A DNA stretch of 64,000 nt from Dentipellis sp. KUC8613 (Eukaryota > Basidiomycota > Agaricomycetes > Russulales > Hericiaceae). Each line of letters starts with the position of its first letter. Position 1 is the first letter of the stretch. The stretch spans positions 27,919-91,918 of the forward strand of contig NSJX01000065.1 of NCBI GenBank assembly GCA_002286715.1, in the 5' to 3' direction. A program made the translations under genes and the position numbers. Of this stretch, positions 38,502 to 64,000 are shown one piece after another. The notes below the pieces were generated by a model that was not told the origin of the DNA, ran no database searches, and worked only from the letters and a program-made list of their open reading frames with translations.

Positions 38502-41500
38502 TCAACGCAACAGCGACCCGCGCGGCTTCCTCAACGTCTCCGCGATCGCCAAGAACGTCTCAGCAAGGTTGACCTGTCCACGAAAAGGAAACAAAGCACC
38601 ACCACCGTCAGTTCCCGCTTCCCCAGTCCACGTTTCAACGAAAGAACCCACAGTGCTAAGGGCCTGGTGGAACGCTGACGGCGTATACGTCCTGCCACTC
38701 TGGTCCACCGGCGCCTCGTTCTGCACCGCCAACGCGACCTGCGCCATCCTGCGCAACGAGCCCGACGCGCCGTCCGGGCCGAACGAGATGGTCTGCAGCG
38801 ACAGCGGCTTCCTGCAGCGCAAACACGGACGTAGCTCCGTCAGCGCTCATCAAGAATGGCCGCACATTCATTGAAAAAACCGAGATCCACTGACCCGCGT
38901 CGCAGGGCAGCCCGGCAGAGCCCTTCCACAGCTGTGTCCCGGAGGGCGCACTGGCCGTCGGACAAGAAGATGACGATTGGGTTGCTAGCAGGGGTGGGGG
39001 GAATTGACATCCAACTTAGACACCGGGTACACGAGCGGACAACGATGCCTCTCACCGGTCGGCGTTCCAGTGGCCCTCCATGACGACGCGCGCGGCGTGC
39101 AGCGCCACAGCGAAATTGGTGCGCCCATACGCCCGCGTGTTCAGAATCGCGCTCAGGAGATCGTCCGGCGAACTCGTGGTGTCGTCCACGACGGGGACGG
39201 TCGTGTTCTCGTCGAAGAACACGATGCTGTAGGCGTCCTGGCGGGCAGCAGGAGCGGCAGCGGGAGCGCCCTGCGTCGCGGCGGCGTTGCGGGCGGTCCA
39301 GAAGCTGTAGAGCGCCGAGAACACTGCGCCGAGTCGGTTGTTGCACGTCCGTCTTATGCGATCCGTGGCCGGCGCGTCTCGCAAAGGACGTCGGTCCTGG
39401 GAGGTCATAGATCCGGACCTGGTGAATGGACACGATTTTAGTTATCCACGCGCAAGCACGAAGCACCCACCTGTCAATGACAAAGATACTGCGAAAGCGG
39501 GTCTCATGAGCAGGAGCAACAGCATGCCTGGGTGAAGGTACATACACGTGCAGGGGGGCCGGCAGAAGGGCAGCCGGATTCTGGCAGGTAAAGTGGTGTC
39601 CGCCAATTGGTGAAACATACCCCACGTCAGGATGCCCATTTGCCTGAGCCGGATGGAACAGGGGAAGAGTGCAGTAAGACGGCTGAGTCGGGTTTGTCGC
39701 GTTGGCAGCGTGTTCGGAACCTATGCTCGAGCGTGACAGCAAGAGTTGAGCCTTCGCTCGTTCTATCTGTAGCAGAAGATTACCTGGACACATTGAGTCG
39801 CTGCCGCAGATCTCGAGTGTTAGCGTCGGGAGAGGGGGTAATGCCACAGGGAACACTCACCACTTCGCGAAATTCGTTTGCTCTTCTCGAGAGTATGGAT
39901 CTAGGGTGAATTCGCACTCAAGATCCACTCAATGGCTACTTGCAGATACCAAGTCCACAAACCTTTGAAGCCTAGAAAGTACGTGTCAGTATTGCGCTTG
40001 ATGCATCATCAAAGGACAACCTCACCTGTCCGTCGCCAATACAACCCATGTGTGATGTAATCCTTCGACCTGTTTGGCTCCGGGAGAAATTGTTCAGAAA
40101 TATGTTCCACCTCTGCACCCCCGCAGATTTCATCGGGTTCCGTGCGACACCAGTCAATGTGGACGTGTCTGCCCATCGAAGTGCATACCAGGTTGCACAT
40201 CATGGGGGCGCCATCGTCGTTTGTCGAGAACTTCCGCCCTTCATGTTCAACAGTGCCATCAGGGCTGTCAATTGCCCACCGAGCGTGGGCCATTGAGCCA
40301 TGCGAGGTCTCGTGTTCTCGTTGGGTGTGGCCTAACGAAAATGAATTGGGAAATTGAGGAGGAATATAGACGCTCTACAGACCTAAGCGCAGCGTGCAGT
40401 AATAACCGCAGTGGTCACAGCTACTCGACAGTCAGTGTCGACCCTCGCCTTAGTCAAGACCATCGTGTCGACACGCACCGAGATTCGCAGAAATGAAAAG
40501 GGCTTTCTTCGGAACTGTGGCAATGAGATCCATCGTGCTCCGTTTGGTCTGGAGGTATCCGCTTGATACAGTCAAGGCGCTTTGCAGCTAGGAGAATCTA
40601 GGTAAGGCAGTGTACAGAGCCGCGCAACGTGTTATTGGCTGACCTTGTGTGTACTTCGCAAACGCGTTTTTGTTAGTACATACTAGACGATTGAAAACCA
40701 CGAAGACTGAAATCCCTCACCTTCGTATATTGGAACGTCTCGTGTTTCCCGGTGAAAGTGGCCTCGATAGAATGAGGGTGCGTCTCAATTTGGCATATAC
40801 CCGGGTCTGCACACAAGGCGTTGCACGAGTGTTCTTGGCTGCAATACTGGTCAGAACTCTCATTTCCATGTACGGACTAGAAACAACACACGGACCCGCA
40901 TAAATGCTTGGCTCCCACCCCGAGCCCGTGCAAATGCTCCTCTTTGCAGAGCTGTTTGCAAAGCTGGCAAGTGACGGGACACAAGCGATCCTCGCACTTG
41001 TGGATTGTGTGTTCTTCGTGACTGAAGGCATGTCGGTATACCCATAAAAAGTGACCAGAATGAGCAAAAACTTTACCTAGGGGTGCAGCAAAATCCAGGA
41101 CACGACCATTTCTTCCCGTCGGGTAAGATGATTTCCGCAAGATCGCAAGGCTATACATGGGGTCCAAGATATCGTTCAAAGGAGGCAGGTGTGGGGATAA
41201 CGAAGGTTCTCTTACCTGGCCGCACATGTGGAGAGGCGCTGAACACATATGTATGTCGTCCTCATGGTTGAGAGCCTATAAGGAGCGGCCTTAGCATTAC
41301 ACTCCAAACTGCGGAAAGCGAATCTTTCACCTTCGTACACACTTCCAAGCATCCCCGCTTGTCGCCCATTTTGCAAGATTCTCCACAGAGATGCGACATA
41401 ACTGTGCATCTTTGATGGTGAACGGGTTAAAAGCACGTAAAGGGTGACGCTGAGTGGAATACGTACACGTGCTTTCCGGGATGTCCAGCACTGTTGCGGC

Positions 41501-44500
41501 ATTAGAATCATGAACGATAATTCAACTTCCAAACTTACGCCATGCCACAAGGTTTTTCGCCGCTGTCCTTGGCGCAGAAGCCGCAATCGTGGATACACTT
41601 GTGATTGGTCTTGCAGTTGTGTGCACCCTCATGAAGTCGCCCCTGGATACAGAGCAACTGGCACGAAGAGCACTGCGCTTTGCACAGTTGAACGCCGGCC
41701 TTTAGCTCGACGCAAGCATTATTGAACGCCCTTCGCAGGTCCTCGATGCTGGCATGACTTGCTTGAAATCTGGAAACGTTGACGGAGATCCATTCGCGAA
41801 CGTGGTCGATGCGCATATCGACCAGAGTATTCAAGTGCGATGCAAAGTCTTGAAGCCAGTCGCTATCCGGTCGATATTGGCGAAGAGAAGTGCCTTCCCA
41901 ACTTTCTTGCAACGCGACCAGCGTGGCCTCACGATTTGCCTCGTCGATTGTCCCTGGTACAAGTCCCATGATATTGAAGAGAGCGTCAGAATCAGACTTC
42001 TCTATGAGGAGGTCTGTATCTAGATTCTAAGCCAAGACGTCAGGCGGCATGTCGCGAAGGATACGATAGAGGTAAAGTTACTTTCAAAGGCTCTGCATCT
42101 GGCTGCATTTCAAACAGCCCGGCTTGCAAGGCATTCGGAAGGTGAGCAAGTAACGTCTGCGCTCGGTGCGCCGCCATTGTTTCTAAATCGCTTTGAGAGA
42201 CGAGACATCCAGGTCAGGCTCTAGGGGACTTACGGGAAAGAGCGCCCCAATCATTCGCCTATGGGTCAGGTCAGCGAACTTCCGTGGTACATGGCTATAC
42301 ATTCATACCTTGAGTTTAGCCATTAGCGTCTTCATCGTATGCAAGAATTCCCCTGCTGTGCGGTGTGTCGTCGGTTGATCGTCCAGAAGACTTCTGACTT
42401 TCGAGAAGAAGAGATAAAACTTGGCAGATTCAATCACAGGCCAGGGAATAATCTTTAGATTTCCGTGGTGAAGACGTGTGATGAAGTTGGATTTTTGTTC
42501 TTCTTGTACAATTCTTTGGATCTTCAACGAAAACCTATATTTTTTGGTAGGCTGATTAACAACATACTTACAAGCCAAAAAGCCGAGCTTACTCTCGCGT
42601 GATATCCGATTTGTCCGTATCAACGACGTCCTTTTCATTGCCTGAGCACACAGTAGAGGCATAATGTAGTCCAGCGTACCTTAATAATAATGAGGAGTGT
42701 TGATTGGAACAATGTCGGGTTTGCCGCCGGATCGAGGATACTTGCGCTAGACTGGAAAGACTGGAAGAGGCCCGTGATGTCGCGGCTCAGGGCGAAATTG
42801 TTACGGAACAGAACCTAGATCGCACTCAGTACTCCAAGAATCCGAGCGTGAGGCCACATACAAGATTTGATATCGCCGTGTTAAAGAGTACCAGGAACGT
42901 GTCTTCTTGAGCGGATCGTTCAATGCTGTGAACACCTGCATTCTCTTCAAAATCGACTCGCCCAAATATTTCACAGTATCGCGAACCTTCGAAATCCAGT
43001 GCGACGATCAGATTTTTGGCAGTTGGCGTGACAGACAGCCAGACACCCTCTGCATAGTTACTTAAGTTCATTTTTCTCAATTCGCGAAGCAGATACTGAC
43101 CCGTAGTCCTCATGGCACTGCCAGCAAAAGACGTATCTGCAAGATGATTGAGCGCGAAGCTCTTCCCAACAGATTGCTCTCCCATCGAAGAAACGACCTT
43201 AACGGGCTACAGAGGTAGCTCAGGATTGGAGTCACATATGTGGGTAGAATTTTCGCACCTTTGAAGCCAAATACGACTGGAAAATTGACTCGTACCAGCC
43301 GAAGGACAGTTTGTCCACGATCCTGCCAACGTCGGCCCCCAGCAGACTCCGCTCGAGGTCTCCAGACTTTACGCCGTCTTTCAGTGGTATAAATCTATTT
43401 TCGCGGCATACGGCGATGTGAATTGGGATAAGACATAGGAGGCCTACGAGCCATTCTCCAACGCGTAGAGTGGAGGCGTTGATGAGGCCATCGAGGTCTG
43501 TTGGAAGTGATTCAGGAAGGGCGGAAATGATCTTCAGGTCGCTCAGCTCATTGCCGGTGGGCTTCCGTGTTTGCTTCTCGAAAGACTCGATCATGTGTTG
43601 AAAATAGGCAGGGAAAGGATAATCGTCGCGATCACTGACGAAGAGAAGGGCCTTCCGATGACGCAGAGGAGTTGTGGAGCTGAATCCATGTCCAATTGCG
43701 GGCTGGACAGGAAAGCGTGTCCACATTTCCGCATGACAATCGATAAGGCAATTATGGACGGTAAGACGACTACCATGACGTCCTTTCTTATCGTTGCCTT
43801 TGGACTCTGTAAATGCGAATTCCGTGACGTTGCTTGTGATGTCCAAGACCGCAGACCTGCAACTGCTGGAGGCTATGTCGAGACCTAGTACGTGAACGGT
43901 AGATCGGTTGACGAACGACGTTAGAACGACATCGTCGACAGGAAGATCGGGTAGGTCGAGGGTGATGCCGGCAGAAGAACCAAAGGTACTTGTGTGGTAG
44001 CCAGTCAAGGTCGATGCATTATCTTGAATGCTGAGCACGAGCAAGCAAGAACCATCCGGTGAGGACCAAACTTTTGCAGGGGAATTGTTGAGAAGTACCG
44101 AAGCGGGTCTAGTAAATAGGTCACAACATGTGCTAGTTTCATTCAAGAGTATCGAAGGCAACATACCGAAACTGCCGCGTTACGAAGGAGTAGATTCGTG
44201 TGCGATGGTGATTGTCGACAAGCGCTATCTCATCGGTGCCTGACACGAAGCAAGCGTGTTGAATCTTGACTTGATCGCGAGAGCTGTACTCCGTATACCA
44301 TTGAGTAAGATCGCCTTGGGTGGCAACAGCTTGTAATGTTCTGAAGGACTCGTCGAATGTATACAAGTGGAGTTGGAGCTGCATTATTGCTTTGTTAGTT
44401 GGTGACGCGACTCCATTCGAGAAATAGATCACCTTTGAAGTTCCACAGACGGCCAGGATACGCTTTGTTTCGTTGAATGCGAAGATAACACCATCGCCTA

Positions 44501-47500
44501 TCTTCGACACATGAAATTTCTTCTTGTGTCTTCTCCTGTCGATTGAATGTTTGATGGTGGCCGTGTCCTCTAGGTAAATCTCAATTTCTTCATCACTACC
44601 ACGGCCAATAAGAATGACTAGCACGCGATTGCTTTCGAGAAGTTGTGTATGCCTAGAGGACAATGTCAAAATGACGCGAAAGGAAGAAAGCGGGACTGAC
44701 ATGTTGGTGCATTGAGTAGGCACGTCAAATACAATTGCTTGCTTTGTATCTGCGATCGGTTTGGGGACAAAGTTAGAATTCAATTGCAATTCCTCTTTCT
44801 CGCCTGAAGGGAGGCTGAATGGGTAGATGGTACAGCGAAGTACGGGATCGTGGAGGTGATATTTTTTTCCAGTGAGCCAGTATACATCTGTGTGCCCTAT
44901 GTCAGCTCGAGTAGACTAGATTTATGAAATATAAGTATGTAATACACCTCGACTTCGATGATAGGCATTGCCAATTTCGAGACGATCGATAGTAACTTGC
45001 CTATTGTATGGATCAATAACCTGAATCTCCGGATCAACGCGCGGACTTACTGTCGAGCATGCACTGTAGACTCTTGGTTGACCTCTTTGATAAACGTTGA
45101 GCGCACCAAGGCCTTCGCTTGATCTTCCTCGTCCGCAATCTTCGACTGGAGTTGGCTTTGGCAATGGCCTAGCTGTATTGTGACGAGGCGATGGGGCAGT
45201 GAACGGAGCAGGAGAGAAATCTTGTCTTGAAGAACAGTTTCCGTAATCGTCTTGACCTTATTGACAAGAGCCTGCGAGGCAGTAGGATCTTTTGCATGAA
45301 ACTTGTTGAGGTCCCGAATGAATTTGGTGTCCTCGGTCGCACGTGCCAGTTTTTGAGCTTCCTCGACTATATGATCGCTTTCGGTGAGTAATCCATCACC
45401 GAACTGCCATACCTTGCCAATGACCCGCTTTCCATATTTGCCCACCTTCTCCCACACGCCTGCGTTTTCTGTTGAGTCCTGATCGTCCTCCCCAGGAAGA
45501 CTCTGAGCAAGAGCTGCTCTGATAAGGAATACATCTTTTGCTGCCAGGACGTTCTCTATCAATTCCAGGACTGCAGGGGCATCTAGGTCCCTAATTTGTA
45601 CGAGGGCCAGTTCTATGACGAGAAATCGTAGTTTCACAGCCCGGAACTCTGGAGCGATGAGGTGATCGAACCCAGCATTGGTGAATGCCTCGACGAATGA
45701 TTGTTCCATGTCCTTATATCGCGAGAAAAGGCTCGTAAGGTAGTCTGTGTCATGAGAATTTATTCAGTGGCCGAAATAACTAGCATAGAAAAAACTGTTC
45801 ACTTGATTCGTGAGGGTTTGTACCGTCAGCCTGAATGGAGCCTGGGGTTCCGAGAGAAAGACTCCTGTTCCAAGATACTGCATGAGACTCTTTATTGCGA
45901 TCGAATGAAGAGGGGGCATGCGTACGGATACATCTGAGCGACACGAGCAATCATGGCTTCTCGTAGACTATCAGTGAGTTGAGGCACGGACTTCGAGACC
46001 TCGTCGTTCATGATTTTTCCCTCTGCATCCCGCTTTGCTTGAGAATCTGCTTCTATGCGCCGCATACCTTCTTTCCATGCTTTGGACTGTTCGTGCCATC
46101 GGCGACTTGGTCTCAACTTTATTATGGTGTCCAATGCGATGTCGTCCAATTTCTCGGAAAGTACAACGGATTCCACAGACCTATGTAACAAGCGAAATTT
46201 ATCAGCGTGAAACCGATCGAAAAGATTTTACATACAAGAGATTGCTCAGGTGGGTTTTATTGCATTCGGTGCCAGCGCTGAACGTTTCGACCGCGTATGT
46301 GGATGGTGAGAATTCTACTGTCATGAAACCCTGTGAAGTTTCGCCTAACACCAGCTTTGGCTTGAACATGTCAACGGGAAAGGCTTGCTGTGCTGGCGGC
46401 TCTTTGCTTTTGATCCTGTTTGAGGTCAACTGATATAGAGATTGGTATCACACGATGCAACTGTACGAAACTCCTCTTACTATAAAACCAGGACGAGTAG
46501 TGACATTTTCCTCCTGTTCATTCGTCTCTGCGACCGTGAAGGTGAAGATTCTGTCATTGTCGGTGAAGTCTGATATATTGTCGATTGGTTCGTCATCCTC
46601 TTCGAGCCACACGATGTCGCGAACACATTCAGCAGAGATAAGTGCAATATTCTGATCACATATCTTCGTGAGGTATCTGATCACCCCATAAGTATGTGTC
46701 CGCGCCCATAAACCAGCTACTTACCGAATGAATGTCACTCTGTTGCGTGCCACGGCCGAAACAGCAGCATCATCCCAGGTCGTGGGCTCGGGCCAGTAAA
46801 CGACGTAGATCTTGTTTTCCGTATCAGAGAACTCCGGCGGCTTCACGAAATATAGCCCTGAGCTCAAAGTCGGCTCGGATACGCCGGATAGGTCATCTTC
46901 TGGTCGGCATAGCTTGCTTTTTCTAGTTGCTTCAAGTAAGTCATTGGGATCCTCAGCCAATCAGGTGTAAAGCTTACATAGCGTTGTCGATAGCTCCGAT
47001 TGATACAAGAAACTTTGCGATTTCCTCCCTGATGCCATAAACTCCGACGGGTCGTACACTCAGCTTGTCAAGCGCCTTGAAGTTAACTTTTGTCAAGGAC
47101 GTATAAGCGCCGGGATGCAGGGTCTCGACGAAATCTCGAAGGGAATCCTGGCAAATGACGATCTTCGCCACTGGTTTCCCATAAAGTAAGGCTATACCTA
47201 ACTCGCTAATGAAAAAGGCTGCCCACCTTGGCCACCACTTCCCTGATCGCTGATAAGATCCAGGACTCGGTATATCCCAGGCATCTTCTTCACCAAGTCC
47301 ATATCGTCTGCATAGGAGATCTGTGTGGGCGTAGATATTTCTTGTGTTGCTTGGCTGTCAGGTATGTTGAGTTCTTCGAGACGTTGTGTGAGTGAATCGT
47401 GAAACTGCTGATCGATTTCCGTTTTTGCATCACTCTGCATACGAGAACTGGTCAATACAACGAAGATCATCTATATGATGGATGCTACCTGAATGTTGGG

Positions 47501-47945
47501 GACTACTTCGATACCGGGAGCCATTTGTGTACTAGTTACATCGACTTCGCGTCTGGAAGGCGGCATGGAGACATAAGCATCTGAGTCAGAGTCGGTATCA
47601 GAAGGGGTGTGTTTCTCCTTTGAGCCAAGTGATTCATTATATCCCTGTGCTTCCTTGAGGACCAGCCTGGGTAGCACAGAAATACGCGAACGGCGTACCA
47701 CGGGAGCTCGATCGGAGGTATCGACGCCATGTTCGAGATCGGGTACTATACAGGGCAACACAATTGAGACTGCCTTCTTATCCCAGATGATTGTACGCAC
47801 CATCAACAGATATTGAGACAGTTTCTTCATCTTGATGCCCACCGCCTCCGGTATCTGGACCTAGTATCATTAGCCGTGATAACTACTTACGTCTGATACT
47901 GATAGATTGTAAGGAATTACCTCCAGCATGGTCATCCGCGTTCAT
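38502..47945 (-). CDS. Giant GBP/VLIG-like GTPase with Cys-rich and vWA domains, paralog A
   Basis: The start is read as ATG at 47943-47945 (MNADDHAG, spliced to DTGGGGHQDEETVSISVDG). Modules in order: acidic disordered N terminus with DTDSDSDAYVSMPPS (47.6 kb); PTQISYADDMDLVKKMPGIY and a folded region to 46.2 kb; helices (45.7-45.05 kb); a beta-rich region like a degenerate propeller (44.8-43.65 kb). The GTPase has P-loop GEQSVGKS (43159-43182), TTEGVWLS and LDFEG near 42990, then HSIERSAQEDTFLVLFNTAI. A helical linker follows (MKTLMAKLK). The Cys/His-rich region is CKAQCSSCQLLC...HKCIHDCGFC, HMCSAPLHMCG, CEDRLCPVTCQLCKQLC (41.75-40.8 kb). WRRTGFKDPYSREE leads to a vWA domain with FVIDRSGSMT (about 39.5-39.4 kb), GRTNF and FLSDG. 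It ends KPRGSLLR at 38502. More than 25 introns; about 2,500 residues. The function is unknown. GBP/VLIG relatives are immune GTPases in animals. Confidence 0.82.
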
Positions 47946-48970: not shown

Positions 48971-51900
48971 TCAGCGAAGTAACGAGCCGCGCGGTTTCCT
49001 CATTGTCTCTGCAATTGCCAGGAATGTCTCCGCCAGACGAACCTTTCGAGCAAAAAGGTGAACGACAGCAACGAGAAGGACATGCTGGGGCACACTTACG
49101 GTATCAATGGCCTCGTGGAAAGAAGACGGGGTAGATCGATGACCATTTGGGTCTGGCAACGCTTGGTTTTGTACATCCAGAGCGAGTTCTGCCATACTCC
49201 GTAGAGTATCTGTCGCCGTTTGCTGACCAAACGAGATTGTTTGGATAGAAAGCGGTTTTCTGACGGGAATATTCGTGAGCACATACGAATATTTTCGGCT
49301 CAAATTTGAACAACTGACCCTCTTTGCGCAGCATCCTGGCACATCGCATCAACCGTGTTACTGAGGGTGTCATCATTGAACCAACTTTCGCCATCGGACA
49401 GAAATATAACAATGGTATCGCTGATGGAGTTTCTGTCAGAGAACGAAAGTTCACCCTCGGGGCTTACTTACCGATCATCACGCCAATTATTTACCATAAC
49501 GGCTTGAGCACACTGTATCGCCGCAGAGAAACTTGTCGCCCCAGAAGGCTCCGTGTCCAAAACCATGCCGAGTAGTTCATCGGGGGAACTAGTGACATCG
49601 TCTGCGAGCGACGTATATGCGTTATGATCGAAAAAGATGACACTATAAGCATCGCGGCGAGCTGGTGCATGAGTGATTCCTTGGCGCGCGGCGTTGAGAG
49701 TCACAGCTGCCTGGCGAGCTGTCCAAAAGCTATAGAGTGCGGAAAAGACTGCCCCGAGTCTGTTGTCACACCTTCTGGCGATGCGATTTGTGGCTGGAGC
49801 ATCCGGTAGCGGGCGCCGATCCTGTTCGGTCATAGATCCCGATCTAAGGAAATGATATTCAATCTGAAGGATGAGCGAAGTGATCAATCAAGCATACTTA
49901 TCGACAACAAAAATCCTAGAGAATGATATGGGGGTAAGGCCCAGGTTCCTTCGAGACAAAGGAACACATACACATGGAACGGCGGCGGGAGTGCGAAAGC
50001 TGGGTTTTGACAAGTGAAATGATGCCCGCCAATCGCCGAGACGTATCCTGGGCCGTTGGCGGCGAGCACCATGTGTTGGTTAGCATGAGCAGAGTGGAAC
50101 AGCGGCAGGGTACAGAAGGAAGGTTGCGCAGGATTTGTCGCGGTCGCGGAGTGCTCGGGACCTAGTTGCACAGCAAGCATGTTATATCAGTATTCTCTAA
50201 TCGTTTATTTAATCGTTCGTGTCACCTGCACACATTGTATCGCTGCCGGTCGTCGAACATGAGCACCAGGAAAATCTAGAGTGAAAAGAGCTCACCAGCT
50301 TGCAAAGTTCGTTTGTTCTTCTCTGGAGTATGGATCTGCAACAGACGGAATTTAAATCGAGATGCATCAGTAAATGGTATCACGCATCGACCCACCTTTG
50401 AAACCTGCACGGGCTGTTTAGTTGTTCAATCTACTCGTCAAGAAAAATCGTGCTCACCCGTTCGCCGCCAATATAACCCATGCGTGATATAGTCCTTGGG
50501 TCTCCCAGGCTCCGGCAAGAATGGCTGGAATATGTGCTCCATCTCGGCACCTTCACAATTTTCATCAGCCTCCGTACGGCACCAGTCAATATGCACATGT
50601 CTGCCAAGCGAAGTGCAGACAAGGTTACACATCATGGGTGCGCCATCGTCATTTGTCGAAAACTTGCGGCCTTCATGCTCGATACTCGTACCGTCGGGCC
50701 CATCTATCGCCCACCGCGCCCGCGACATGGATCCGTGTGAAGTCTCATGTTCTCGTTGCGTGTGACCTAGTGTAAGATGAGACTCAGCGCACGAGCACGA
50801 AGATCAAACACTAACCGAGCGGTAGCGTGCAATAATATCCGCAATGGTCGCATCTATATTTTCTGTAAGCGGTCAATGTTCGACAGTGGGAGATGCCACG
50901 GACGCACCGTGACTCGCAAAAATGGAATGGCCGCGGTTCTGAACTGTGACAATGAGGACCTCGATGCTCTGTTTGATCAGGAGGAATACGCTTGATGCAA
51001 TCGAGACGTCTTGCGGCTGGTAAATGGTGGATGAGACAAGGGAACATGACCATTTCACACACGATGACCGACCTTGTGTGTACTAAAAAGTCTTGTGAAC
51101 AAGTTTCAGGATATTCAATTAGATAAAGCACACACCTTCGTGTACTGGAAAGTCTCGTGTTTGCCAGTAAAGGTAGCCTCAATGGAGTGAGGGTGTGTCT
51201 CAATTTGACATATGCCTGCGTCTGCACACAGAGCGTTACACGAATGCTCTTGGCTACATCATTCGTTAGCAGGATCCTTTGTAGGATTGATTCAGTAAGA
51301 CGGACCCGCAAAGATGATTTTGCCCTTCTTCAAGCCCGTGCAAGTGCTCGTGTCTGCAAAGTTGTTTGCAGAGTTGACAAGCAACCGGACACAGCCGGTC
51401 ATCGCATTTGTGGATTGTGTGTTCTTCGTGGCTATAATGTCATGAATAAGTATTTCACATGGCGATAACGCAATGAAAGCGGACCTGGGAACACAGCAAG
51501 TTCCAGCACATGACCATCTCTTTCCACTGGGGAGCAGAATATCTGCAAGATCACAGGGCTGTATACATGTTCCGGGTTGAGATCAAGCATCCAGACGGAG
51601 ATCGATTTTGTTACCTTTCCGCACATATGGAGAGGTGCCGAGCACATATGAACACCGTCGACATGACCCAATGCCTGAGAGTTATCGTGTCAGTATCGAC
51701 CGTTCTCTGCAACAACTCTGTTACTGACCTTTGTGCACTCCCCCATGCAGCCTTGCTTGTCTCGAAGCTTACAGGGATCGCCGCAGAGATGCGACGTTAT
51801 ATTACATCTGGGACGGTGAAACATGAACGAGGAAGAACGACGCCTTAAGAGAGGTTTTGCAAACACTTACACGTGTTTTCCTGGATGTCCAGCGCTACTG

Positions 51901-54900
51901 CCTAGTCAGAATGGCGAATTATCGTCATCAAAAGCAAGACTTACGCCATTCCGCACGGCTTTTCAACATTAGCCTTAGCACAGAAACCACAGTCGTGGAT
52001 GCACTTATGGGCAGTCTTGCAATTATGTGCACCTTCGTGAAGACGACCTTGTATGCACAACAGCTGACATGTTGAGCACTGTGCCTTGCAGAGTTGGACG
52101 CTGGCCTTCAGTTCTACGCTTGCATTGTTGAAAGTCCGACGTAGATCTTCGACACTGGCATGATTCGCTTGAAATCTGGAGACATTCACCGATATCCATT
52201 CGCGGACATGGTCGATACGCATGTCTGCTAAAGCATTTAGGTGAGTTGCGAGCTCTTGAACCCACTCATTGTCAGACTGGTGCTGGCGAAGAGATGCCCT
52301 ATCCCAATTATCTTGCAACGTGGCAAGCACATCTTCGCGGTTCATCCCGTCACTTGAACCCAACAGCTCCGTAACACTGAAGAGTGCACCGGAATCAGGT
52401 TTATCGATCGGCAAATCTGTATCCAGGTTCTAAAGCCAGCAGTCAGCGCATCCATTACAATAATAAGTATGATATGGGGTGCTTGCCTTAAGAGGTTCCG
52501 CATCCGGCTGTATGTCGAAGAGCCCCGCGTGTAGTGCAATTGAAAGGTGTGAAAGTAGCGTCTGCGCACGATGGGTGGCCATTGTCTCTAATGAAATTTT
52601 CAGCAGACTCGATGTGAGGGAGTATTTTGGAGGACTCACGTGAAAGTGCACCCCAGTCGTTTGCCTATGATTGATGGTAAGTCAAACATTCCGAACAATA
52701 TGTCTGCCCCAGCTACGCGCCTTTAGCTTCGCCATCAAGGTTTTCATTGTGTGAAGGAACTCCCCGGCTGCACGGTGGGTCGTAGGCTGATCCTCCAAAA
52801 TGACTCGAACAGTATGGAATAACTGGTAGAACTCGTTGGATTCAATCACCGGCCACGGGATAATGTTCAGCTTTCCGGCATGAAGACGGGATATGAAGTT
52901 GGCATCACGTTCTTCATGGACGATTTTCTGGAACTTCAACGAGAATCTATGTTTCATAGGGTTAGAATCCCCGCCAGTAGGGAGAAATATAAAATATTCT
53001 CGGACATACTCTCGTGTGATATCAAATTTGTCCGTATCGACAACATCCTTCACGGGAGTTCGGTCAAATGACGAAGCCGATAACCTATACATTCAACATA
53101 CCTTGATGATGATGAGGAGTCTTGACTGGAATAAAGATGGATTTGCTGCCGGGTCTAGGATATTTGCGCTTGATTGGAAGGATTGAAATAGGCCCGTGAT
53201 GTCACGACTGAGAGCGAAATTGTTCCGGAAGAGAACCTGCTCTATGGCTCAGCACCCGTGCACGTTCGCGAAAGAAAATTCGTACAAGGTTTGATATTGC
53301 GGTATTGAATAGCACCAGAAAGGTGTCTTCTTGTGCGGACCGCTCGATGCTGTGAACGCCTACATGTTCTTGAGGATAAGTTTTCTACGAACTAAATGAA
53401 ATCACTAACCTTCAAAATCCAATGCGACGATCAAATTGTTAGCAGTCGGCGTGACGGACAGCCAAACGCCCTCTAAATGATGCTACGATCAGTTCTGATT
53501 CTGGGTCGCAGAGTGGGCACCGACCTGTAGTCCGCATAGCACTCCCGGCGAACGAAGTATCCGCCAAATGGTTGAGTGCGAAGCTCTTGCCGACAGACTG
53601 CTCTCCCATTGAGGAGACAACTTTCACCGGCTGCGAAAGTCATTAAATAAGAAATGTATTGTATTAGAAATTCGAGTTCCCTACCTTCGAGGCCAGATAT
53701 GACTGGAAAATGGATTCGTACCAGCCAAAAGACATGTTGTCCACGATGCGGCTGACATCGGCCCCGAGCAGATTTTTCTCCAGGTCTGCGGAGTATACGC
53801 CATCCTTCAGTGGTATGAACCTATTTTCACGGCAAACAGCAATATGGATTGGAATCAGGCAAAGTAGCCCAACAAGCCATTCTCCCACCCGCAAAACTGA
53901 GATGTCGAGAACAGTGTCGGTTTCCGCCAAAAGCCGTTCAGGAAGCGTTGAGAGTATTGACAATTTGCTCAGCTCGTCCCCAGTCGGCTTTCGAGTCTGC
54001 TTCTCGAAAGATTCGATCATATGTTGGAAGTAGGTAGGGAAAGGATAGTCGTCGCGATCGCAAACGAAAACAAGTGCTTTCTCACGACGCCAATTGGTGG
54101 ATGAAATGGTACTATGCCCGATGGCGGACTGCACGGGGAAGCGTGTCCACATTTCCGAGTGACAGTCAATGAGGCAATTGTGAGCCGTGGAATGATCGCC
54201 ATGATGACCTTTCTTCCCCTTGCCTCCGTATTCTGTGAACATGAATTCCGTCACGTTGCTCGTGATATCTAGTGCAACAGATTTGCAGGTATGAGAAGAC
54301 GCGTCGAGTGCCAGTAAGTGGACCGTCGATTTGTTGACGAATGACGTCAAGGTAACATCGTCGATTGGAAGGTCAGGCAAATCAAGCGAAAGCCCTGTAG
54401 ACGAGCCAAAGGTGCTCGTGTGGTAGCCTGTCAAAGTGGGAACAGAATCTTGATGAGTGAGCGCCAGTAAACAAGATCCATCTGGCGAGGACCAAACTTT
54501 CGAAGGACGGCTTTGGAGTGTGACAGAGGCAGGGCTATTGCAGGTTAAGACATGGCCTAGTGATGCACCATTATTTGAACAACTTACCGAAATTGTAACG
54601 TCACGAAAGAATAGATTCGTGCACGAAGGTGACTATCGATCAGCAGGATCTCTTCGGTTCCCGAGATGAAACAAGCATGGCAGATCGCGACCTCAGAACT
54701 GTACTCCTTGAACCACGGTGCAAGGTCTACTTTGGCGACTGCCTGTAGTGTTCTCAGGGACTCGTCGAATGCATACAAATGGAGTTGCAGCTGAGAATTG
54801 CAACATTAGCGCGAACAATCACCCAAGCATAAGGTTTGAAGCACCTTGGATGACCCGCATACAGCCAAATTACGCTTACTTTCATCAAATGCAAAGAGAA

Positions 54901-57900
54901 TCCCATCGCCAATTTTCTCCGTATGAAACTTCTTTTTGGCCTTTCCCTTGCTAATAGCGCTGTTGATGGAAGCCGGATCCTCCAGGTATATCTCAACCTC
55001 TCCCATACCATCACGAGTGATGAGTATTACAAGCACTCGGTTGTTCTCGAGGAACTGTACATGTCTGAGAATCCAAAGACGTAAGAAACGATATGATAGG
55101 GAACGCGGGATGCATGACTCACCTGACGACGCAATGAGTGCGTATCTCGAATTCAATAGCTTGTTTCGCATCTGCGATTGGCTTCGGAACAAACTTGCGG
55201 TCCAGTTGTAACTCATGTCTTTCCTCCGTCGACAAGCTAAACGGGAATATATTGCAACGAATCACGGGCTCGTGGAGGAAGTACTGGCAGCCAGAGATTC
55301 GGTAAGTATCTATAAGCCACGGATGAGTTGGGATGATGACGCAGCAACAGTTGTAGTTACCCAGATGGTAGATGCGTCTGACCTCGAGATGCTCGAAATG
55401 GATCCGTCTGAGCGAAAGATCAGAACGATAGTGGCTCTTCAAATTAGAGACTTACACTGGAGCTGAAGGCGGAGCCTCGCTGTTCACCCCGTTGATGAAA
55501 GCAGTACGCAAAAGTGACTTGGCACGCGCTTTCTCGCCGGCAAGTTCGAGCTTCAGCTGCTTCTTGCAAGTCACGTCCTGTATTGCCAGGATGCGATGAG
55601 GCAGCCGTTTAAGAATAGAGGATATTCTTGATCGAAGAACATCCGCTGCAACGCTCTTGATTTTTGCAACGAAGGATTGCAATGTTCTATTGTCGGCAGG
55701 GAATGTCTCGAGATCGATGAGGAACTTAGCGTCGACAGTGTCTTGCACAAGGGTCTTTGCGTCCTGAACTAGATCGCGATTGCGGGCTGATTGAGGTTCG
55801 TTAGACCCCGCTAGATAACCCCAGACCTTCTGTTGAACTTTAGTCAACAAACCGGCATTCTCCTCCGCACTTGGAGTGCGACTAGCTGAAGGTTTCGAAG
55901 AGATCGCTTCACGTATCTTGTCTTCTGTACTTGCGCGAAGAATCCTTCTAAGGAGCTCGTCGACACCAGAGGAGGCCAGAGCTTCGTCTTTGAGGGCGAG
56001 CTGTATAACGGCGAATTGCAGCTTTAGACGCCGGAACTCCGCGTTGTTCAGCTTCTCGAAATCAGCTTTGTTCAACTCGTCATTGTAAAGCTGCTGCATG
56101 CCGCTGTACATTGTGAAAAGGTTCGTGATGTACTCTGCAAGACATTGTGTCAACGCCAGGACGAAATAGCTCGAAGGATGCCGTTACCTTGTGCACCATG
56201 GGTCGGAGTATCTGCAGGCATAGGGCCAAGTGAAGAAGGAGAAAGAGTGCTACAGAAAAGCGACTCATTAATACAAGGATCCCATTCACATTACGAAGAT
56301 ACTCGTACGTACGGGTAAATGCGAGCAACATGCTTGATTACGGCTTCTCGCAAACTTTCTTCTAGCTGACGCAGGCTGCCATCGAGTTGTTCTTTCAGAT
56401 TTCGCTGCCTGTCTTCCGACTGCATTTGAAACCTTTTCTCCAAGTCCGAGTTTCCTGTCGCCCTCTCGACACATTGCGGGAGCCAGCGACCTTTGGGCTT
56501 TAGCTTCGTGATGATGTCCAACGCCTCATCGTCCAACGACTCGGAAAGAGTTACACACTCGACGCTCCTTCAGTCGTGAGGGTGATGAGCCGCAGGGAAC
56601 AGAAGTATTGCAAAGATAGGACTGACAGTAGGTCACGAAGGTGGGTCACATAAAATTCGCGTCTTATATCAAACACCTCGGTTGTTGTTTCGGGAGGTGA
56701 GAACTTCATCACCATGAACCCTTGCGAGGTTTCACCCTGTATCAACTTCGGCTTGAACATATCAATGTCAAGCGAGTCGGATCCCTCGGGCAATCTATGG
56801 GCTCTTATGTACTTCGAAGTCAACTGTCACAAACATGTGTCAGTGCTTCATAAAGAAAGCGATTGAATGATAATCTGCTACCGTAAAACCAGGATGAACA
56901 GTGATGTTTTCCTCTTGTTCGTTCATTGTTTCGACTTCAAAGGTGAAGACCCTGTCGGTGCTCGTGACGTTGGGCATTGCCACAGTTGATGTATCACCTT
57001 GGCCGTGCCATACAATGGTGCGAGCGCATTCAGCAGATATAAGCGCGACATTTTGGTCGCACAACTTTGTCAGGTACCTACCCGCCTTATGAGTATACAT
57101 TAACCACTCGCAGTACAATCACCTACCTCATGAACGTCACTCGATTACGCGCCACCGCGGATACAGCAGAATCGTCCCATGTCGTTGACTCAGGCCAATA
57201 GACAACATAGATCTTGTTTTCCGTGGCGGAGAACTCGGGAGGCTTGACGAAATACAACCCTGATCTAAGGACGGGCTCGGAAACGGACGACAAGTCATCT
57301 TCGGGCCGGCACATCCTGCTCATGCTAAGAAACAGAATAAACATTGACATGCGGCTCGGAATAGAAACTTGGCAGAACTCACATGTTCTCGTCAATGGCA
57401 CCAATCGACACCAGAAACCCTGCTATCTCCTCTCTGATCCCATATATCCCAACGGGCCGTACGTTCAACTTATCAAGAGCCTTGAAATCGACCTTGGTTA
57501 GCGATGTATAAGCTCCGGGGTACATGGATTCGACGAAGTCTCGTAAAGAGTCTTGGGAAATGACGATCTTGGCGACTACTTTCCGGGTCAGGTGATATCC
57601 AGCATTCTTGATACTAGAGAATGCCTACCAAGGCCTCCACTGCCTTGATCGCTGATGAGATCGAGGATACGATAAACACCTGGCATCATTTTCACGAGAT
57701 CCATGTCGCTCGTATATGATATCTGAGTAGGCGTGGCTGCCAAGTCGCGGGCTTCTTGCATGTCCATGTCCTGATTCGCGGGCGTTTCTAAAGCCCTGAG
57801 ACGTTGTGCGAGCGACTCGGGCAGACTCTGCACGTTGCTCGTCTCCGTAGTCATCTCTATATCAGGTAGCATTTCGGGGCCAGATGCCGTGGGGATGCTC

Positions 57901-58280
57901 TGGCCATCCGCCTCACCTCGAGACGGTGGCAATGACATGAAGACATCAGAGTCGGTGTCAGAGTCAATGCTGCTCTGATTCTGAACAGCACGGTTCATCT
58001 CACAGTCCAGGAAGAGGAGAAAGTAGCTAGAACTCACTGTGGAATCCTGGTTGTGGGTATCGACTTCAGTATCGGGTTCTGGCATTGAAATGACTTCGTT
58101 AAGAAGGTTCACGACGCACGACGTGAGACAACTGCTCGCACCATCAATGCTTATCATCGCAGTGTCTTCATCGTGATAGCCTTCAAGTCGGCCGCCTATT
58201 CCTGTCGCCGTCAGCTCAAGTCGCAGCTACAACGGCTCAGGCTGGAACAAAGGCACACCTGGATCGGCGGAACTTGTCAT
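48971..58280 (-). CDS. Giant GBP/VLIG-like GTPase with Cys-rich and vWA domains, paralog B
   Basis: The start at 58278-58280 gives MTSSADPG, spliced across an intron ending GGCGACAG to IGGRLEGYHDEDTAMISIDG, which matches the equivalent HQDEETVSISVDG of paralog A. Module order is the same: acidic N terminus (DTDSDVFMSLPPS near 57.95 kb), VKMMPGVYRILDLISDQGSG, helical exons (56.15-55.45 kb), beta-rich exons (55.4-54.05 kb), then the GTPase with GEQSVGKS (53583-53606). The linker is LHTMKTLMAKLKA. The Cys-rich block is CKAQCSTCQLLC...HKCIHDCGFC (52.1 kb). The vWA domain has FVVDKSGSMT (about 49.9-49.8 kb), TSFSAAIQCAQ and VIFLSDG (49.4 kb). It ends KPRGSLLR at 48971. All metal-site and P-loop residues are kept, so it looks functional. 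It is the complete paralog with the clearest start and stop. Confidence 0.83.
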
Positions 58281-59046: not shown

Positions 59047-62000
59047 TCATAGAACAGCGACGGGAAGCAACGAGCCTCGTGGCTTCCTCAATGTCTCTGC
59101 GATTGCTAAGAATGTCTCTGCAAGATTGACCTTTGAAAGTATGAGTATGACTACCATTCACCCTGTATACAGGGCAGACTCCAGCGCTGGGGACTCACGG
59201 TACTGAGGGCCTCGTGAAAAGCCGAGGGAGTAGACGGACGGCCATTCGGGTCAGGCGGAACCTCGTTCTGGATCTCTAAAGCGACTTGCGCCATTCTCTG
59301 CAGCGTTCCAGAGGACATGCGAGGCCCAAATGAGATTGTCTGCAGGGACATTGGTTTCCTGCGACATTCACGCTCAGATTGAATTTCCGTCCAAAGAAGT
59401 GTCAATTTGGCGCCAACCTTCGTTGCAGAGCAAACCGGCACAAGGCTTCAACGGTGCGATTGTTGACTCTGCATTCGCCATCAGACAAGAAGATCACGAT
59501 AGGATCCCTAGAAAAGACGCCATTCTCAAAAACTGCTCATAATGGTGTTGTACAGACCTGCTTACCGCTCGTCGTTCCAGTTCCTCTCCACAACAGCCTG
59601 AGCCCCCTGCAGTGCCGCAGTGAAATTAGTACCTCTAGAACTCCTCGTTTGTAAAAGTATATCCAGAAGCTCCGCAGGAGAGCTAGTAACGTCGTCCTCG
59701 ATGGGAATGGTCGTGTTACTATCGAAAAACACGACGCTGTATGCATCTCGGCGAGCAGGGGGAGGTGCGCCTCTTGCTCGTGCTCCGCCCTGGGCTGTGG
59801 CAGCGGCACGAGCGGTCCAGAAGCTATAAAGTGCGGAATATACCGCGCCGAGCCGGTTATTGCAGTATCGAGCAATGCGATTCGTGGCTGGTGCATCTGG
59901 CAAGGGCCGACGATCTCGATAAGTCATTGAACTGGACCTGTTGTACGAAATTGAGAAACAAAGTTCGGCTGGTATCCGGCAGCAAACGTACCTATCAATA
60001 ACAAAGACCCTATAGCGACCACAGAGTAAGCAAGTAGAGCCGTTCACATGCATATATGTACCTACACATGGAATGGCGCTGGTAGCATGACGGCCGGATT
60101 CTGGCAAGAGAAATGGTGCCCGTCGGTTGCTGAGAAATATCCTAGACCGCCAACCAGAGCGTCTGCTTCGGGGACATGGAGTGGATGGAATAGCGGAAGG
60201 GTGCAGTATGAAGGCTGTGCAGGGTTCGTCTCGGTTGCAGAGTGTTCAGGACCTGGTTAGAAATTAAAAAGTTCACACATGTCGATAAGAAGGAAGAAAT
60301 AGTTTTGAAAACACCAGTCACTTACCTGGGCACATAGTATCACTTTTGGAACCCAGAATTAGCGATGAGTGATGTTGTTGATCGAGCATACTCACCATTT
60401 TGCGAAATTTGTACGTTCCTCTCGAGAGTAAGGATCTATAGTGAAAGTCGTGTCAAAATCGTAGAACTTTACCAGTATGATTCAACCGACCTTTGAAGCC
60501 TGGAAGTGATGGTCGAATCCTGCGTAAGTTTACGTCTTTCGGTAAGATTCTGCTCACCCTTTCGTCGCCAATACAGTTCATGTGTAATGAAATCCTTCGC
60601 CCGGTCAGGGTCCGGCTGCATCCTCCGAGAGATGTGTTCTACATCTGTGCCTTCGCAAGGTTGCCCGGCCTCCGTGCGGCACCAGTCAATATGAACGTGT
60701 CTTCCAAGTGAAGCGCACACGAGATTGCACATCATAGGTGCGCCGTCATCATTGGTCGAGAACCTGCGTCCTTCATGTTCGATAATTGTATCATCTGTGC
60801 CATCTATCGCCCAACGAGCGCGTGACATCGAGCCATGAGATGTCTCATGCTCTGGCTGTGCATGGCCTGACGCGGACTGTTCAGCAGCACTTATACTATT
60901 CAAATTACAACACTGACCTAGGGGCAGCGTGCAGTAATACCCACAGTGGTCGCAGCTACCCATTCGTCAATACCTATTACTGTGAAAGAAGGGATATACG
61001 CGTACCGGATCTCACAGAAATGGAATCGGTGTGCTTCTGAGCTATGTGAATGAGAGCCGTCGTGTTCTGTTTGATCAGGAGGGATACTTTTGACGCAGTC
61101 GAGCCGTCTTGCGACTAGTACACCATGAGTGAGTGAAGTTTGTACTCTTGTGGCGCGCATCGGCTAACCTTGTGTGTACTTCAAAAACGGTCAGTCAGAG
61201 CGTCACTAGTCGTTTCCACAAAAAGCTCACCTTTGTGTATTGAAATGTCTCATGATTGCCTGTAAAAGTGGCCTCAATGGAATGAGGGTGTGTCTCAATT
61301 TGACATACGCCTGGGTCAGCACACAATGCACTACACGAGTGCTCTTGACTATGACCCTTGTCAAAGAAACACGTAACAAAAAGAAACAGATGAACGGACC
61401 CGCAGAGATGCTTTGCCCCTGCTTCAAGCCCGTGTAAATGATCTTCTTTGCATAGCTGCTGGCAAAGTTGACACGTTATGGGGCACAGTCGGTCCTCACA
61501 CTTGTGAATTGTATGTTCCTCGTGACTAAGTATACGGATAAGCGACCACCCAGAGAGGGTATGTACAGAAGGTTTACCTGGGAACACAGCACAGGCCGGG
61601 GCATGACCATCTCTTTCCGTCAGGTAATATGATCCCCGCAAGATCGCAGGGCTATACACAATTTTCGGATTGTCAAGAAGAATACCCGCAAAAAAAAACG
61701 GCATTGTTACCTCGCCGCACATGTGGAGGGGTGCGGAACACATATGCGTGCCATCTTCATGGTTTAACGGCTGCAGTAGACCAACTTAGTATCGCATTTG
61801 ACTAGAAGAGTCATTAATGTTACCTTTATACATTCTTCCATACATCCTTCCTTGTCGCGAAGCTCACAAGGTTCCCCGCAGAGGTGCCAAGTAACTGCAC
61901 ATCTTTTATCATATGATCTCAGCCGGAGAGCAGTATGTGTAGAAGAATCACTTACACATGCTTCCCCGGGTGTCCGGCACTGTAGCGTCGTCAGGATACA

Positions 62001-64000
62001 TGACTAACGTTGTACGAGCTCAAGCAAAACATACACCATGCCGCAGGGCTTTTCTATACCATCCTTGGCACAGAAGCCACAGTCGTGTATGCACTTGTGA
62101 GTCGTTTTGCAATCATGCGGGCCTTCGTGAAGGCGACCTTGAACGCAGAAAAGCTGGCATGTGGCGCACTGGGCTTTACACAATTTCACGCTAGCTTTTA
62201 ACTCTACGCAGGCATTGTTGAAGGTCCTTCGTAGGTCCTCGATACTAGCATGACCCGTTTGAAATCGAGCCACATTGACAGAAATCCACTCGCGAACGCG
62301 ATCAATTCGGAGATCAACCAGAGAATCTAGATGCAATATCAGCTCATGAAGCCATTCACCATCGGGTTTGTGCTGGCGGAGAGAAGCGCCATGCCATTCC
62401 GTTCGAAGCGTGACCAGGGCAACATCACGATCACTGAGTGAGCCTAGTGACCCTTCGACGAAGAACATAGCGTCTGAATCCGGCTTCTCCGTAGGGAGGT
62501 CTGTATCCAGATTCTAATGGAGATATTACTACCCGTCTTGGCAGGAGGTTAAATGATAAGACTCGCCTTCAAATGCTCTGCATCCGGGTGTATTTCAAAT
62601 AGTCCGGCTTGCAGGGCATTGGGCAGATGAGCTAGTAACGTCTGAGCCCGGTGCGCTGCCATTGTTTCTACACACATTGACTTAACGGCAGACTCCAGAG
62701 TAGACTCAGACGGGCTTACGAGATAGGGCGCCCCAGTCATTTGCCTATACAAATGCACGATAAGTGACGACGATTCTTGCATGTAAGTTCATGCATACTT
62801 TAAGCTTAGCCATTAGGGTCTTCATCATGTGAAGAAACTCTCCCGCCGCATGATGCGTTGTGGGCTGCTTGTCCAAGAGTGTTCTTACCGTGTGGAATAA
62901 ACGGTAAAACTCGGCAGACTCGATCACAGGCCACGGGATGATATTTAGTTTTCCAGCATGAAGACGAGATATGAAATTTGCGTCTCGCTCTTCATGAACA
63001 ATCTTCTGGAATTTCAAGGAAAATCTGTGTGAATCCTCGATCAGCTACCAAATTACACTCAAGACATGCGGATACTCACTCTCGCGTGATGTCTGATTTA
63101 TCCGTGTCGACAACGTCCTTTTTGAAGGTGAATCAGAGTGATACAGAAACGGGATATTGCTCCAACTCACCTTGATAATAATGAGGAGCGTAGATTGGAA
63201 CAAAGATGGATTTGCCGCAGGATCAAGGATGTTCGCGCTGGATTGAAACGACTGAAAAAGGCCCGTGATGTCACGGCTCAGAGCAAAGTTATTGCGGAAC
63301 AGGACCTGGTCGACAATGTTCAAGACTCCAAAAACCTGAGCACAAAGCCACATACAAGATTCGAAATCGCCGTGTTGAAGAGTACCAGGAACGTGTCTTC
63401 TTGAGCAGATCGTTCTATGCTGTGGACACCTGCATTACTTTCAGGCTCCGGTTCATCTGAGATTCTGTATACCCCGTTCTATAACGAACCTTCAAAATCC
63501 AGTGCGACGATCAGATTTTTGGCAGTTGGCGTGACAGACAGCCAGACTCCCTCTAACAAGTTGCTTCAGGTCAGCCGCTCGATGAGCAAAGAAAATACTG
63601 ACCAGTAGTCCTCATGGCACTTCCGGCGAAGGAGGTATCTGCGAGATGATTAAGCGCGAAGCTCTTCCCAACAGACTGCTCCCCCATCGAGGAAACGACC
63701 TTGACGGGCTATATAGATAGCTCAACATTGAGGTTACATGAATAGACGGAATTCTCTCACCTTCGAGGCCAAATACGACTGGAAGATTGATTCGTACCAG
63801 CCGAAAGATAGATGATCTACGATTCGGGTAACATCAGCCCCTAGCAGGCTTCGCTCAAGGTCTCCAGAGTATCTCCCATCCTTCAGTGGTATAAACCTGT
63901 TCTCCCGACAGACAGCGATGTGGATGGGTATAAGGCAGAGGAGGCCCACAAGCCATTCACCCATTGGGAAGATGGATACGTCCAGATTACCGTCAAGGCT
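59047..64000 (-). CDS. Giant GBP/VLIG-like GTPase with Cys-rich and vWA domains, paralog C (N terminus outside window)
   Basis: The visible part starts within the exon GEWLVGLLCLIPIHIAVCRE, just before the GTPase; everything N-terminal lies beyond 64000. P-loop GEQSVGKS is at 63661-63684, and LDFEG joins VHSIERSAQEDTF over an intron that is longer than in A. Next come LFRNNFALSRDITGLFQSFQ, FISRLHAGKLNIIPWPVIES and the Cys/His-rich region (CKAQCATCQLFC...HKCIHDCGFC at 62.15 kb; CEDRLCPITCQLCQQLC at 61.5 kb; EHSCSALCADPGVCQ at 61.3 kb). WRRKGFKDPYSREER leads to a vWA domain with FVIDRSSSMT (60.0-59.93 kb), RGTNF and VIFLSDG. The protein ends KPRGSLLPVAVL at 59047, five residues past the usual KPRGSLLR end, because the codon after LL differs and the stop is shifted. 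Confidence 0.8.

What the first reader, a model, noticed from the sequence alone, without database searches (positions are those of the whole stretch)
38502..64000. Tandem array of giant GTPase / zinc-rich / vWA proteins: candidate undescribed system
Three paralogs in a row each join a dynamin-superfamily GTPase of the GBP/VLIG/Sey1 type (GEQSVGKS, TTEGVWLS, LDFEG...ERSAQEDT) to a long Cys/His-rich region and a C-terminal vWA domain. I know of no characterised protein with this order. GBP and VLIG GTPases act in animal cell-autonomous immunity, and tandem expansion with divergence is common in fungal self/non-self and defence loci. An immune or quality-control role is inference. The intact P-loops and metal sites in all three copies argue against decay.
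Basis: partly seen in the sequence, partly recalled or inferred. Interest (0 to 1): 0.88.

Follow-up and report, generated by a model that had tools for sequence, protein, structure and literature searches.

The report
Three giant fungal GTPase genes
Three neighbouring genes of a fungus each encode a giant protein that joins a GTP-powered switch, a large probably metal-binding region and a vWA domain; relatives with the same plan occur in very distant fungi, and no function for them was found here.

Summary
Three minus-strand paralogs stand head to tail (38.5-47.9, 48.97-58.28, 59.05-68.5 kb; the third runs past the window end) in Dentipellis sp. KUC8613. Each is one intron-rich gene (36-43 predicted exons) for about 2,300-2,400 aa: acidic tail, alpha/beta domain, beta-propeller split by a fast-evolving helical module, dynamin-superfamily G domain, Cys/His region (69 conserved Cys/His, all in all three copies) and vWA domain with MIDAS motif. 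A search of the 34-Mb genome found no other copy. It is not a local oddity: full-length relatives with GTPase, Cys/His region and vWA occur in Agaricomycetes, Glomeromycotina, Mucoromycotina, Basidiobolus and a chytrid, filed as 'hypothetical' or 'VWFA domain-containing' and often apparently clustered. The G domain lies between GBP, Sey1/RHD3 and VLIG/URGCP and passes no membership test cleanly; the genome has its own Sey1-like gene. The rows listed by ten paper searches describe no such family. The pattern of change (frozen GTPase, constant Cys/His, diverging helical module) fits a GTP-driven sensor/scaffold; an immune role is inference (whole mechanism about 0.4). New variant of a known kind; interest 0.62.

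The parts
38502..47935 (-). copy 1, whole gene (P0005 = DENSPDRAFT_787266); 36 exons predicted; start uncertain, possibly up to about 48283
38502..39553 (-). copy 1 vWA domain (DRSGSM, LSDG)
39554..41693 (-). copy 1 Cys/His region, 69 of 69 conserved Cys/His
42256..43206 (-). copy 1 GTPase core (GEQSVGKS, TTEG, DFEG, IIIKD)
43760..46555 (-). copy 1 beta-propeller split by the helical insert (insert 45074-46249)
   Evidence: boundaries carried over from copy 3
48971..58280 (-). copy 2, whole gene (P0001 = DENSPDRAFT_625472, whose deposited model stops about 129 aa before the C-terminus found here); 40 exons predicted
48971..49979 (-). copy 2 vWA domain (DKSGSM, LSDG)
49980..52099 (-). copy 2 Cys/His region, 69 of 69 conserved Cys/His
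52100..52661 (-). copy 2 helical segment after the GTPase
52662..53630 (-). copy 2 GTPase core
53685..54185 (-). copy 2 segment before the GTPase, with the conserved hydrophobic GEWLVGLLCLIPIHIAV stretch
54186..55478 (-). copy 2 second part of the beta-propeller
   Evidence: boundaries carried over from copy 3
55479..56640 (-). copy 2 fast-evolving helical module inserted in the propeller
56641..56956 (-). copy 2 first strands of the propeller
56957..57731 (-). copy 2 conserved N-terminal alpha/beta domain, fold not assigned
57732..58280 (-). copy 2 acidic, poorly conserved N-terminal tail
59047..64000 (-). copy 3, part inside the window (vWA, Cys/His region, GTPase and some sequence before it); P0004 starts at about 68519 in window numbering = C134:96437
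59050..60073 (-). copy 3 vWA domain (DRSSSM, LSDG)
60074..62189 (-). copy 3 Cys/His region, 69 of 69 conserved Cys/His
62742..63708 (-). copy 3 GTPase core

Best explanation
What it is (shown): each gene encodes one multidomain dynamin-superfamily GTPase of about 2,300 aa, a member of an ancient fungal family with the order alpha/beta - propeller with helical insert - GTPase - Cys/His - vWA. How it most likely works (inferred): a GTP-driven sensor/scaffold, probably cytosolic. The helical module on the propeller, which diverges fastest, binds a target. GTP binding makes the nearly invariant G domains dimerise and assemble, as in GBPs. The Cys/His region, whose Cys/His are constant, and the MIDAS-bearing vWA domain then recruit or mark a partner, perhaps through the ubiquitin system. 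Diverging tandem copies would carry different target specificities. The most likely setting is cell-autonomous defence or intracellular quality control.
Against: No expression, phenotype, partner or biochemical data. The GTPase (pLDDT mostly 25-45) and much of the Cys/His region were modelled badly, so neither fold is confirmed by structure. dS is saturated or above 1.2 between the copies, so positive selection in the helical module could not be tested; relaxed constraint explains its divergence as well. In one ortholog pair the Cys/His region is as divergent as the helical module (0.77 each), perhaps through a gene-model error. The vWA domain is only 57-69% identical between copies (partly retained introns in my models). 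Families in trafficking and development also expand in tandem (recalled). A ubiquitin link has no catalytic motif behind it.
Confidence: 0.4

Rival explanations
1. Membrane remodelling or trafficking factor. The GTPase tethers or shapes an internal membrane as atlastin/Sey1 does, with propeller and vWA as coat or adaptor parts.
For: The P-loop GxQSxGKS is of the Sey1 type and SEY1 is among the best PDB matches; RHD3_GTPase matches 19 of 20 family members at E <= 0.1. A conserved hydrophobic stretch lies just before the G domain (best 19-residue window of P0004, mean hydropathy 1.88 at 1245; 1.38-2.01 at the same place in the other 8 proteins checked).
Against: The genome has a separate gene over the RHD3_GTPase cut-off on contig C27, while P0004 scores below it (34.1 against 42.4). 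The next separate windows of P0004 reach only 1.27 and 1.24, and no window after the G domain in the printed top three of the 9 proteins checked exceeds 1.35, so there is no sign of a Sey1-like hairpin there. The very uneven rates of change fit poorly with a housekeeping role.
Confidence: 0.22
2. Allorecognition or somatic incompatibility proteins whose variable helical module separates self from non-self after hyphal fusion.
For: Clustered, diverged copies; a fast-evolving module in a frozen frame; presence in filamentous Agaricomycetes and Glomeromycotina.
Against: Relatives occur in chytrids and Basidiobolus, where hyphal fusion is not the rule (recalled). No population data were available.
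Confidence: 0.15
3. Ubiquitin- or proteasome-linked quality-control factor (works like RNF213 in spirit, by another route), the Cys/His region acting as ligase or ubiquitin reader.
For: The closest vWA folds include proteasome subunit Rpn10 and TFIIH p44; 69 conserved Cys/His could hold many metal sites (inference).
Against: No RING, RBR or other ligase model matched in Pfam; the only zinc-type match is a weak B-box-like one in 1 of 20 members (ANCHR-like_BBOX, E 0.012). vWA folds resemble one another widely: integrin and pilin domains score within 2 Z units.
Confidence: 0.15
4. Artefact: three separate genes, or decaying copies, that only look joined.
Against: Database models, own splicing and relatives join the modules. 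Protein-level constraint is strong, with dN far below saturated dS.
Confidence: 0.02

Closest known systems
Guanylate-binding proteins (GBP1/2/5)
   Same: G1-G3 segment matches by profile (GBP2 1.4e-6); Pfam GBP passed by 7 of 7 members with printed bits (P0001, P0004, P0007, P0241, P0317, P0348, P0341)
   Different: P-loop GEQSVGKS against GBP2 GLYRTGKS; G domain in the middle of about 2,300 aa, not N-terminal; C-termini KPRGSLLR or KPRGSLLPVAVL, not CaaX; propeller, Cys/His and vWA regions added
Sey1/RHD3/atlastin ER-fusion GTPases
   Same: GxQSxGKS P-loop; profile match to SEY1 4.1e-6
   Different: RHD3_GTPase below cut-off in 7 of 7 members whose bits were printed; no hydrophobic hairpin seen after the G domain; the genome has its own Sey1-like gene
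VLIG/URGCP very large GTPases of animals
   Same: Giant size; URGCP_GTPase matches 19 of 20 family members at E <= 0.1; UniRef calls some relatives 'VLIG-type G domain-containing protein'
   Different: Highest score printed is 41.6 bits against a cut-off of 55; split among many introns; Cys/His and vWA regions added. That animal VLIGs lack these is recalled, not tested
Intracellular vWA proteins (Rpn10, TFIIH p44/Ssl1)
   Different: 11-18% identity; no GTPase in those proteins (recalled)
NFX1-type zinc fingers
   Same: H-x-C-x3-C spacing (resemblance recalled)
   Different: No NFX1 model in the Pfam tables; longer units C-x3-C...H...H-x-C...[HC]-x-C-x3-C

Membership tests
GBP | Pfam GBP model above its gathering score | tested here: met
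   P0004 22.3, P0007 22.9, P0001 22.6, P0241 28.9, P0317 25.5, P0348 21.5, P0341 28.5 against 21.1 bits; 14 of 20 relatives match at E <= 0.1
GBP | GBP-type P-loop with Arg (catalytic role recalled) | tested here: not met
   GxQSxGKS in 15 of 15 members checked against GLYRTGKS of GBP2 in the alignment
GBP | N-terminal G domain followed by an extended helical domain (PMC8565484, passages) | tested here: not met
   G domain at about residues 1313-1528 of 2368, followed by a helical segment and then Cys/His and vWA
GBP | CaaX box (in 3 of 7 human GBPs, PMC8565484) | tested here: not met
   C-termini KPRGSLLR (copies 1 and 2) and KPRGSLLPVAVL (copy 3)
Sey1/RHD3 | RHD3_GTPase above its gathering score | tested here: not met
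   34.1, 31.6, 32.5 and 23.2, 32.9, 30.0, 31.6 against 42.4
Sey1/RHD3 | Transmembrane hairpin after the G domain (recalled) | tested here: not met
   The top three separate hydropathy windows of P0004 are before or inside the G domain (1.88 at 1245, 1.27 at 885, 1.24 at 1419); crude Kyte-Doolittle test
VLIG/URGCP | URGCP_GTPase above its gathering score | tested here: not met
   15.3-18.1 bits in three Agaricomycete members, 34.5-41.6 in four others, cut-off 55
Dynamin superfamily | G1-G4 motifs of a large GTPase | tested here: met
   GxQSxGKS, TEG and DFEG in 15 of 15 members checked; I[IV]KDV in 10 of 15 by a strict pattern; Dynamin_N itself matches only 4 of 20, best E 0.028
Dynamin superfamily | Nucleotide-dependent self-assembly | not testable with these tools
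   Needs biochemistry
vWA | Pfam vWA model above its gathering score | tested here: met
   VWA_2 42.2 (P0004), 39.8 (P0007), 28.3 (P0001, truncated) against 27 bits; 18 of 20 relatives at E <= 0.1
vWA | Rossmann-like vWA fold | tested here: met
vWA | MIDAS DxSxS ... T ... D | tested here: met
   DRSGSM / DKSGSM / DRSSSM with T and LSDG in copies 1-3. A strict pattern found DxSxSM in 8 of 15 members, P0004 included; D2133, S2135 and S2137 are at least 90% conserved in the 30-row alignment
NFX1-type zinc finger | Pfam zf-NF-X1 match | tested here: not met
   Absent from the tables (E <= 10) and 84 and from the 14 families

The most novel reading that the evidence does not exclude
A pan-fungal intracellular receptor family with its own logic: a frozen GTPase engine and a conserved metal-rich and vWA output, aimed by an interchangeable helical sensor set in a beta-propeller, and multiplied in tandem. 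It would be a fungal counterpart of GBP/VLIG defence, older than the split of chytrids, Glomeromycotina and mushrooms.
Probability: 0.25. Interest if true: 0.88.

Novelty: new variant of a known kind. Interest (0 to 1): 0.62.

Why it matters
Fungal cell-autonomous defence is known mainly from ascomycete incompatibility genes (recalled). Here is a giant GTPase family, found from chytrids to mushrooms and arbuscular mycorrhizal fungi and apparently often clustered, for which the searches made here found no described function. Its Cys/His region matches no Pfam family over a cut-off, yet keeps 69 Cys/His across phyla. If it senses intruders or damage, the question of what fungi use in place of animal GBPs and NLRs becomes testable. 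If it is a housekeeping machine, a major conserved fungal protein has gone unstudied.

Tried and rejected
Separate genes: rejected, since database models, own splicing and relatives join the modules. Decay: rejected. Bacterial or viral origin: pattern scans of genome contigs (66 stretches matched) and viral contigs (33) gave no relative by tblastn; no phage record matched; 4 proteins matched no PADLOC model at E <= 0.01 and no NCBIfam model over its cut-off. The contig scans use two short peptides each, so none of this proves absence. Sey1 ortholog: rejected. The first genome search with the GBP family found nothing, but its control rang nowhere either, so it says nothing; the control also rang nowhere.

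The N-terminal alpha/beta fold was not searched alone, as the propeller filled the lists; families missing from those lists are not excluded. Positive selection could not be tested because dS is saturated. Presence outside fungi is open: each protein search lists only the best 120 of 695, 835 and 225 hits and limits candidate length. I saw no ascomycete among the listed rows that bear an organism name (taxonomy recalled; many rows bear none), which does not prove absence. An acidic N-terminal motif seen in the Dentipellis proteins was not found by pattern in the other members checked and was dropped. Two chytrid members (P0341, P0353) lack the Cys/His region in the alignment, their precomputed domain lists have no vWA, and P0341 has none; truncated models or another architecture, not resolved. 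Most papers were seen only as listings with the start of the abstract; of PMC8565484 I saw passages.
Full report
WHAT IS THERE. The window is part of contig C134 (27919-91918) of a 34.1-Mb genome; database hits on a contig of C134's length (129414 bp) name it Dentipellis sp. KUC8613. Between 38.5 kb and the window end, direct repeats recur at 10.1-10.4 kb spacing. The sequence beyond the window was fetched. A dynamic-programming splice model trained on long open frames gave one long minus-strand gene per copy. Guided by the database proteins, the final models have 36, 40 and 43 exons with median introns of 54-56 nt, and recover 2142 of 2149, 2201 of 2201 and 2368 of 2368 residues of P0005 (copy 1), P0001 (copy 2) and P0004 (copy 3). 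My models keep some probable introns as coding, and the extreme N-termini are unsure. P0001 stops about 129 residues short of the C-terminus found here. In a search of the whole genome all 68 scored matches to P0004 lie on C134:66423-96437, that is, on the array; 20 of 27 first-look candidates were scored.

G DOMAIN. Pfam: GBP just above its cut-off (22.3 against 21.1 bits), RHD3_GTPase below (34.1 against 42.4), URGCP_GTPase far below (15.3 against 55) for P0004. Of 20 chosen fungal relatives, 19 match URGCP_GTPase, 19 RHD3_GTPase, 14 GBP and 4 Dynamin_N at E <= 0.1. A profile of 30 relatives finds GBP2 (1.4e-6), GBP1 (2.8e-6) and SEY1 (4.1e-6) in the PDB over the G1-G3 part. The P-loop is GxQSxGKS in 15 of 15 members checked, like Sey1 GSQSTGKS and unlike GBP2 GLYRTGKS in the same alignments. 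The domain therefore belongs to the GBP/Sey1/VLIG part of the dynamin superfamily, but I file it under none of the three. A separate gene over the RHD3 cut-off sits on contig C27, so the array is not the fungus's Sey1.

CYS/HIS REGION. 69 Cys/His are at least 90% conserved among the rows with a letter in an alignment of 30 chosen relatives. Copies 1, 2 and 3 have 69 of 69 each (copy 1 checked in the 26-row alignment A1). Of the 30 rows, 27 keep 65 or more, P0059 keeps 62 with 6 gaps, and P0341 and P0353 (chytrids) lack the region. The unit C-x3-C ... H ... H-x-C ... [HC]-x-C-x3-C occurs twice, and its core four times, in P0004; none of 5,000 shuffles of the region reached either count. Pfam shows nothing there over a cut-off in the proteins with printed tables; one weak B-box-like match turned up in 1 of 20 members.

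HOW WIDESPREAD. A search with residues 1000-2000 of copy 2 found 695 proteins (120 listed); the listed rows that bear an organism name are Agaricomycetes (taxonomy recalled), six rows bear none. A GTPase-only search limited to short proteins (835 hits, 120 listed) added Tilletiopsis, Rhizophagus, Racocetra and Dentiscutata. A probe built from arbuscular-mycorrhizal partial proteins (225 hits, 120 listed) found full-length proteins with GTPase and vWA in Rhizophagus, Funneliformis, Diversispora, Geosiphon, Ambispora, Endogone, Basidiobolus and the chytrid Phlyctochytrium; those of them put in the 30-row alignment also keep the Cys/His. Names given are mostly 'hypothetical' or 'VWFA domain-containing protein'; a few look misnamed. 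In one search, 21 contig lengths (own contig included) are shared by two or more listed members of one species (read by eye), which suggests recurrent clustering but does not prove adjacency.

EVOLUTION OF THE ARRAY. In a 26-row tree, copy 1 pairs with D. fragilis g2356 and copy 2 with g2357 (both SH-aLRT 100); copy 3 stands beside them without a D. fragilis partner among the rows used. At least the copy 1/copy 2 duplication thus predates the split of the two fungi. Between copies dS is 1.2 to saturated in every domain, while dN is 0.03-0.07 in the GTPase, 0.12-0.13 in the Cys/His region, 0.22-0.34 in the vWA domain and 0.51-0.70 in the helical insert. The copies are old and constrained. Over 26 relatives, 40-residue bins are 0.92-0.97 conserved at 1321-1440 and 0.80-0.82 in the rest of the GTPase, 0.64-0.81 in the Cys/His region and 0.30-0.45 in the helical insert. 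Between copies 1 and 2 and their D. fragilis orthologs the GTPase identity is 1.00 to two decimals in both pairs, the helical insert 0.66 and 0.77. Against a clean reading: in the copy 2 pair the Cys/His region is also only 0.77 identical, and in the Imleria pair a propeller scrap of 2 residues scored below the helical insert.

MECHANISM. Shown: the domain order in single gene models, intact motifs, the distribution and the pattern of change. Inferred from a known family: GTP-dependent dimerisation and assembly, as for GBPs (PMC8565484, passages seen). Inferred with no direct evidence: that the helical module recognises a target, that the Cys/His and vWA parts pass the signal on, and that the setting is defence or quality control. 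I put the whole mechanism at 0.4, membrane remodelling at 0.22, allorecognition at 0.15, a ubiquitin-linked factor at 0.15.

NOVELTY. Ten full-text searches listed no paper that describes the family. Searches found no paper and one unrelated paper; searches matched 35-231 papers each, of which 10-20 were listed, so papers below the listing were not seen. The library holds only open-licence PMC papers. None of this is proof. The GTPase and vWA are known kinds; the architecture, the Cys/His region and the propeller with its insert make it a new variant of a known kind.

Noticed in passing
G000:C27:234124-235231 (-): A gene over the RHD3_GTPase cut-off, probably the fungus's true Sey1.
   Followed up: partly
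window 11742-14695: AT-rich stretch (GC 0.398 at 12001-14000) with open frames, one matching OrsD (PF12013); looks like a mobile-element-type stretch (inference).
   Followed up: no
window 31868-32485: Run of unread residues inside an open frame: an assembly gap or withheld stretch; 215 N in the joined sequence.
   Followed up: no
window 5091-28139: Neighbouring frames match AAA_11/AAA_30 (5091-6251), ThiF (9369-10199, below cut-off), PCRF/RF-1 (17592-18524), PHM7_cyt (21289-22071) and UBX (27102-28139): mixed, housekeeping-like context.
   Followed up: partly
P0341 (Chytriomyces), P0353 (Dinochytrium): Family members whose models lack the Cys/His region and show no vWA although they keep the GTPase: truncated models or an alternative architecture.
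   Followed up: no
P0158, P0169, P0159, P0170, P0347: Relatives deposited under unlikely names (VPS13A, cytochrome P450, trip12 ligase), perhaps fused gene models.
   Followed up: no
P0001 (DENSPDRAFT_625472): The deposited model of copy 2 ends inside the vWA domain; the remaining residues (about 129 in my model) are encoded downstream at 48971-49420.
   Followed up: yes
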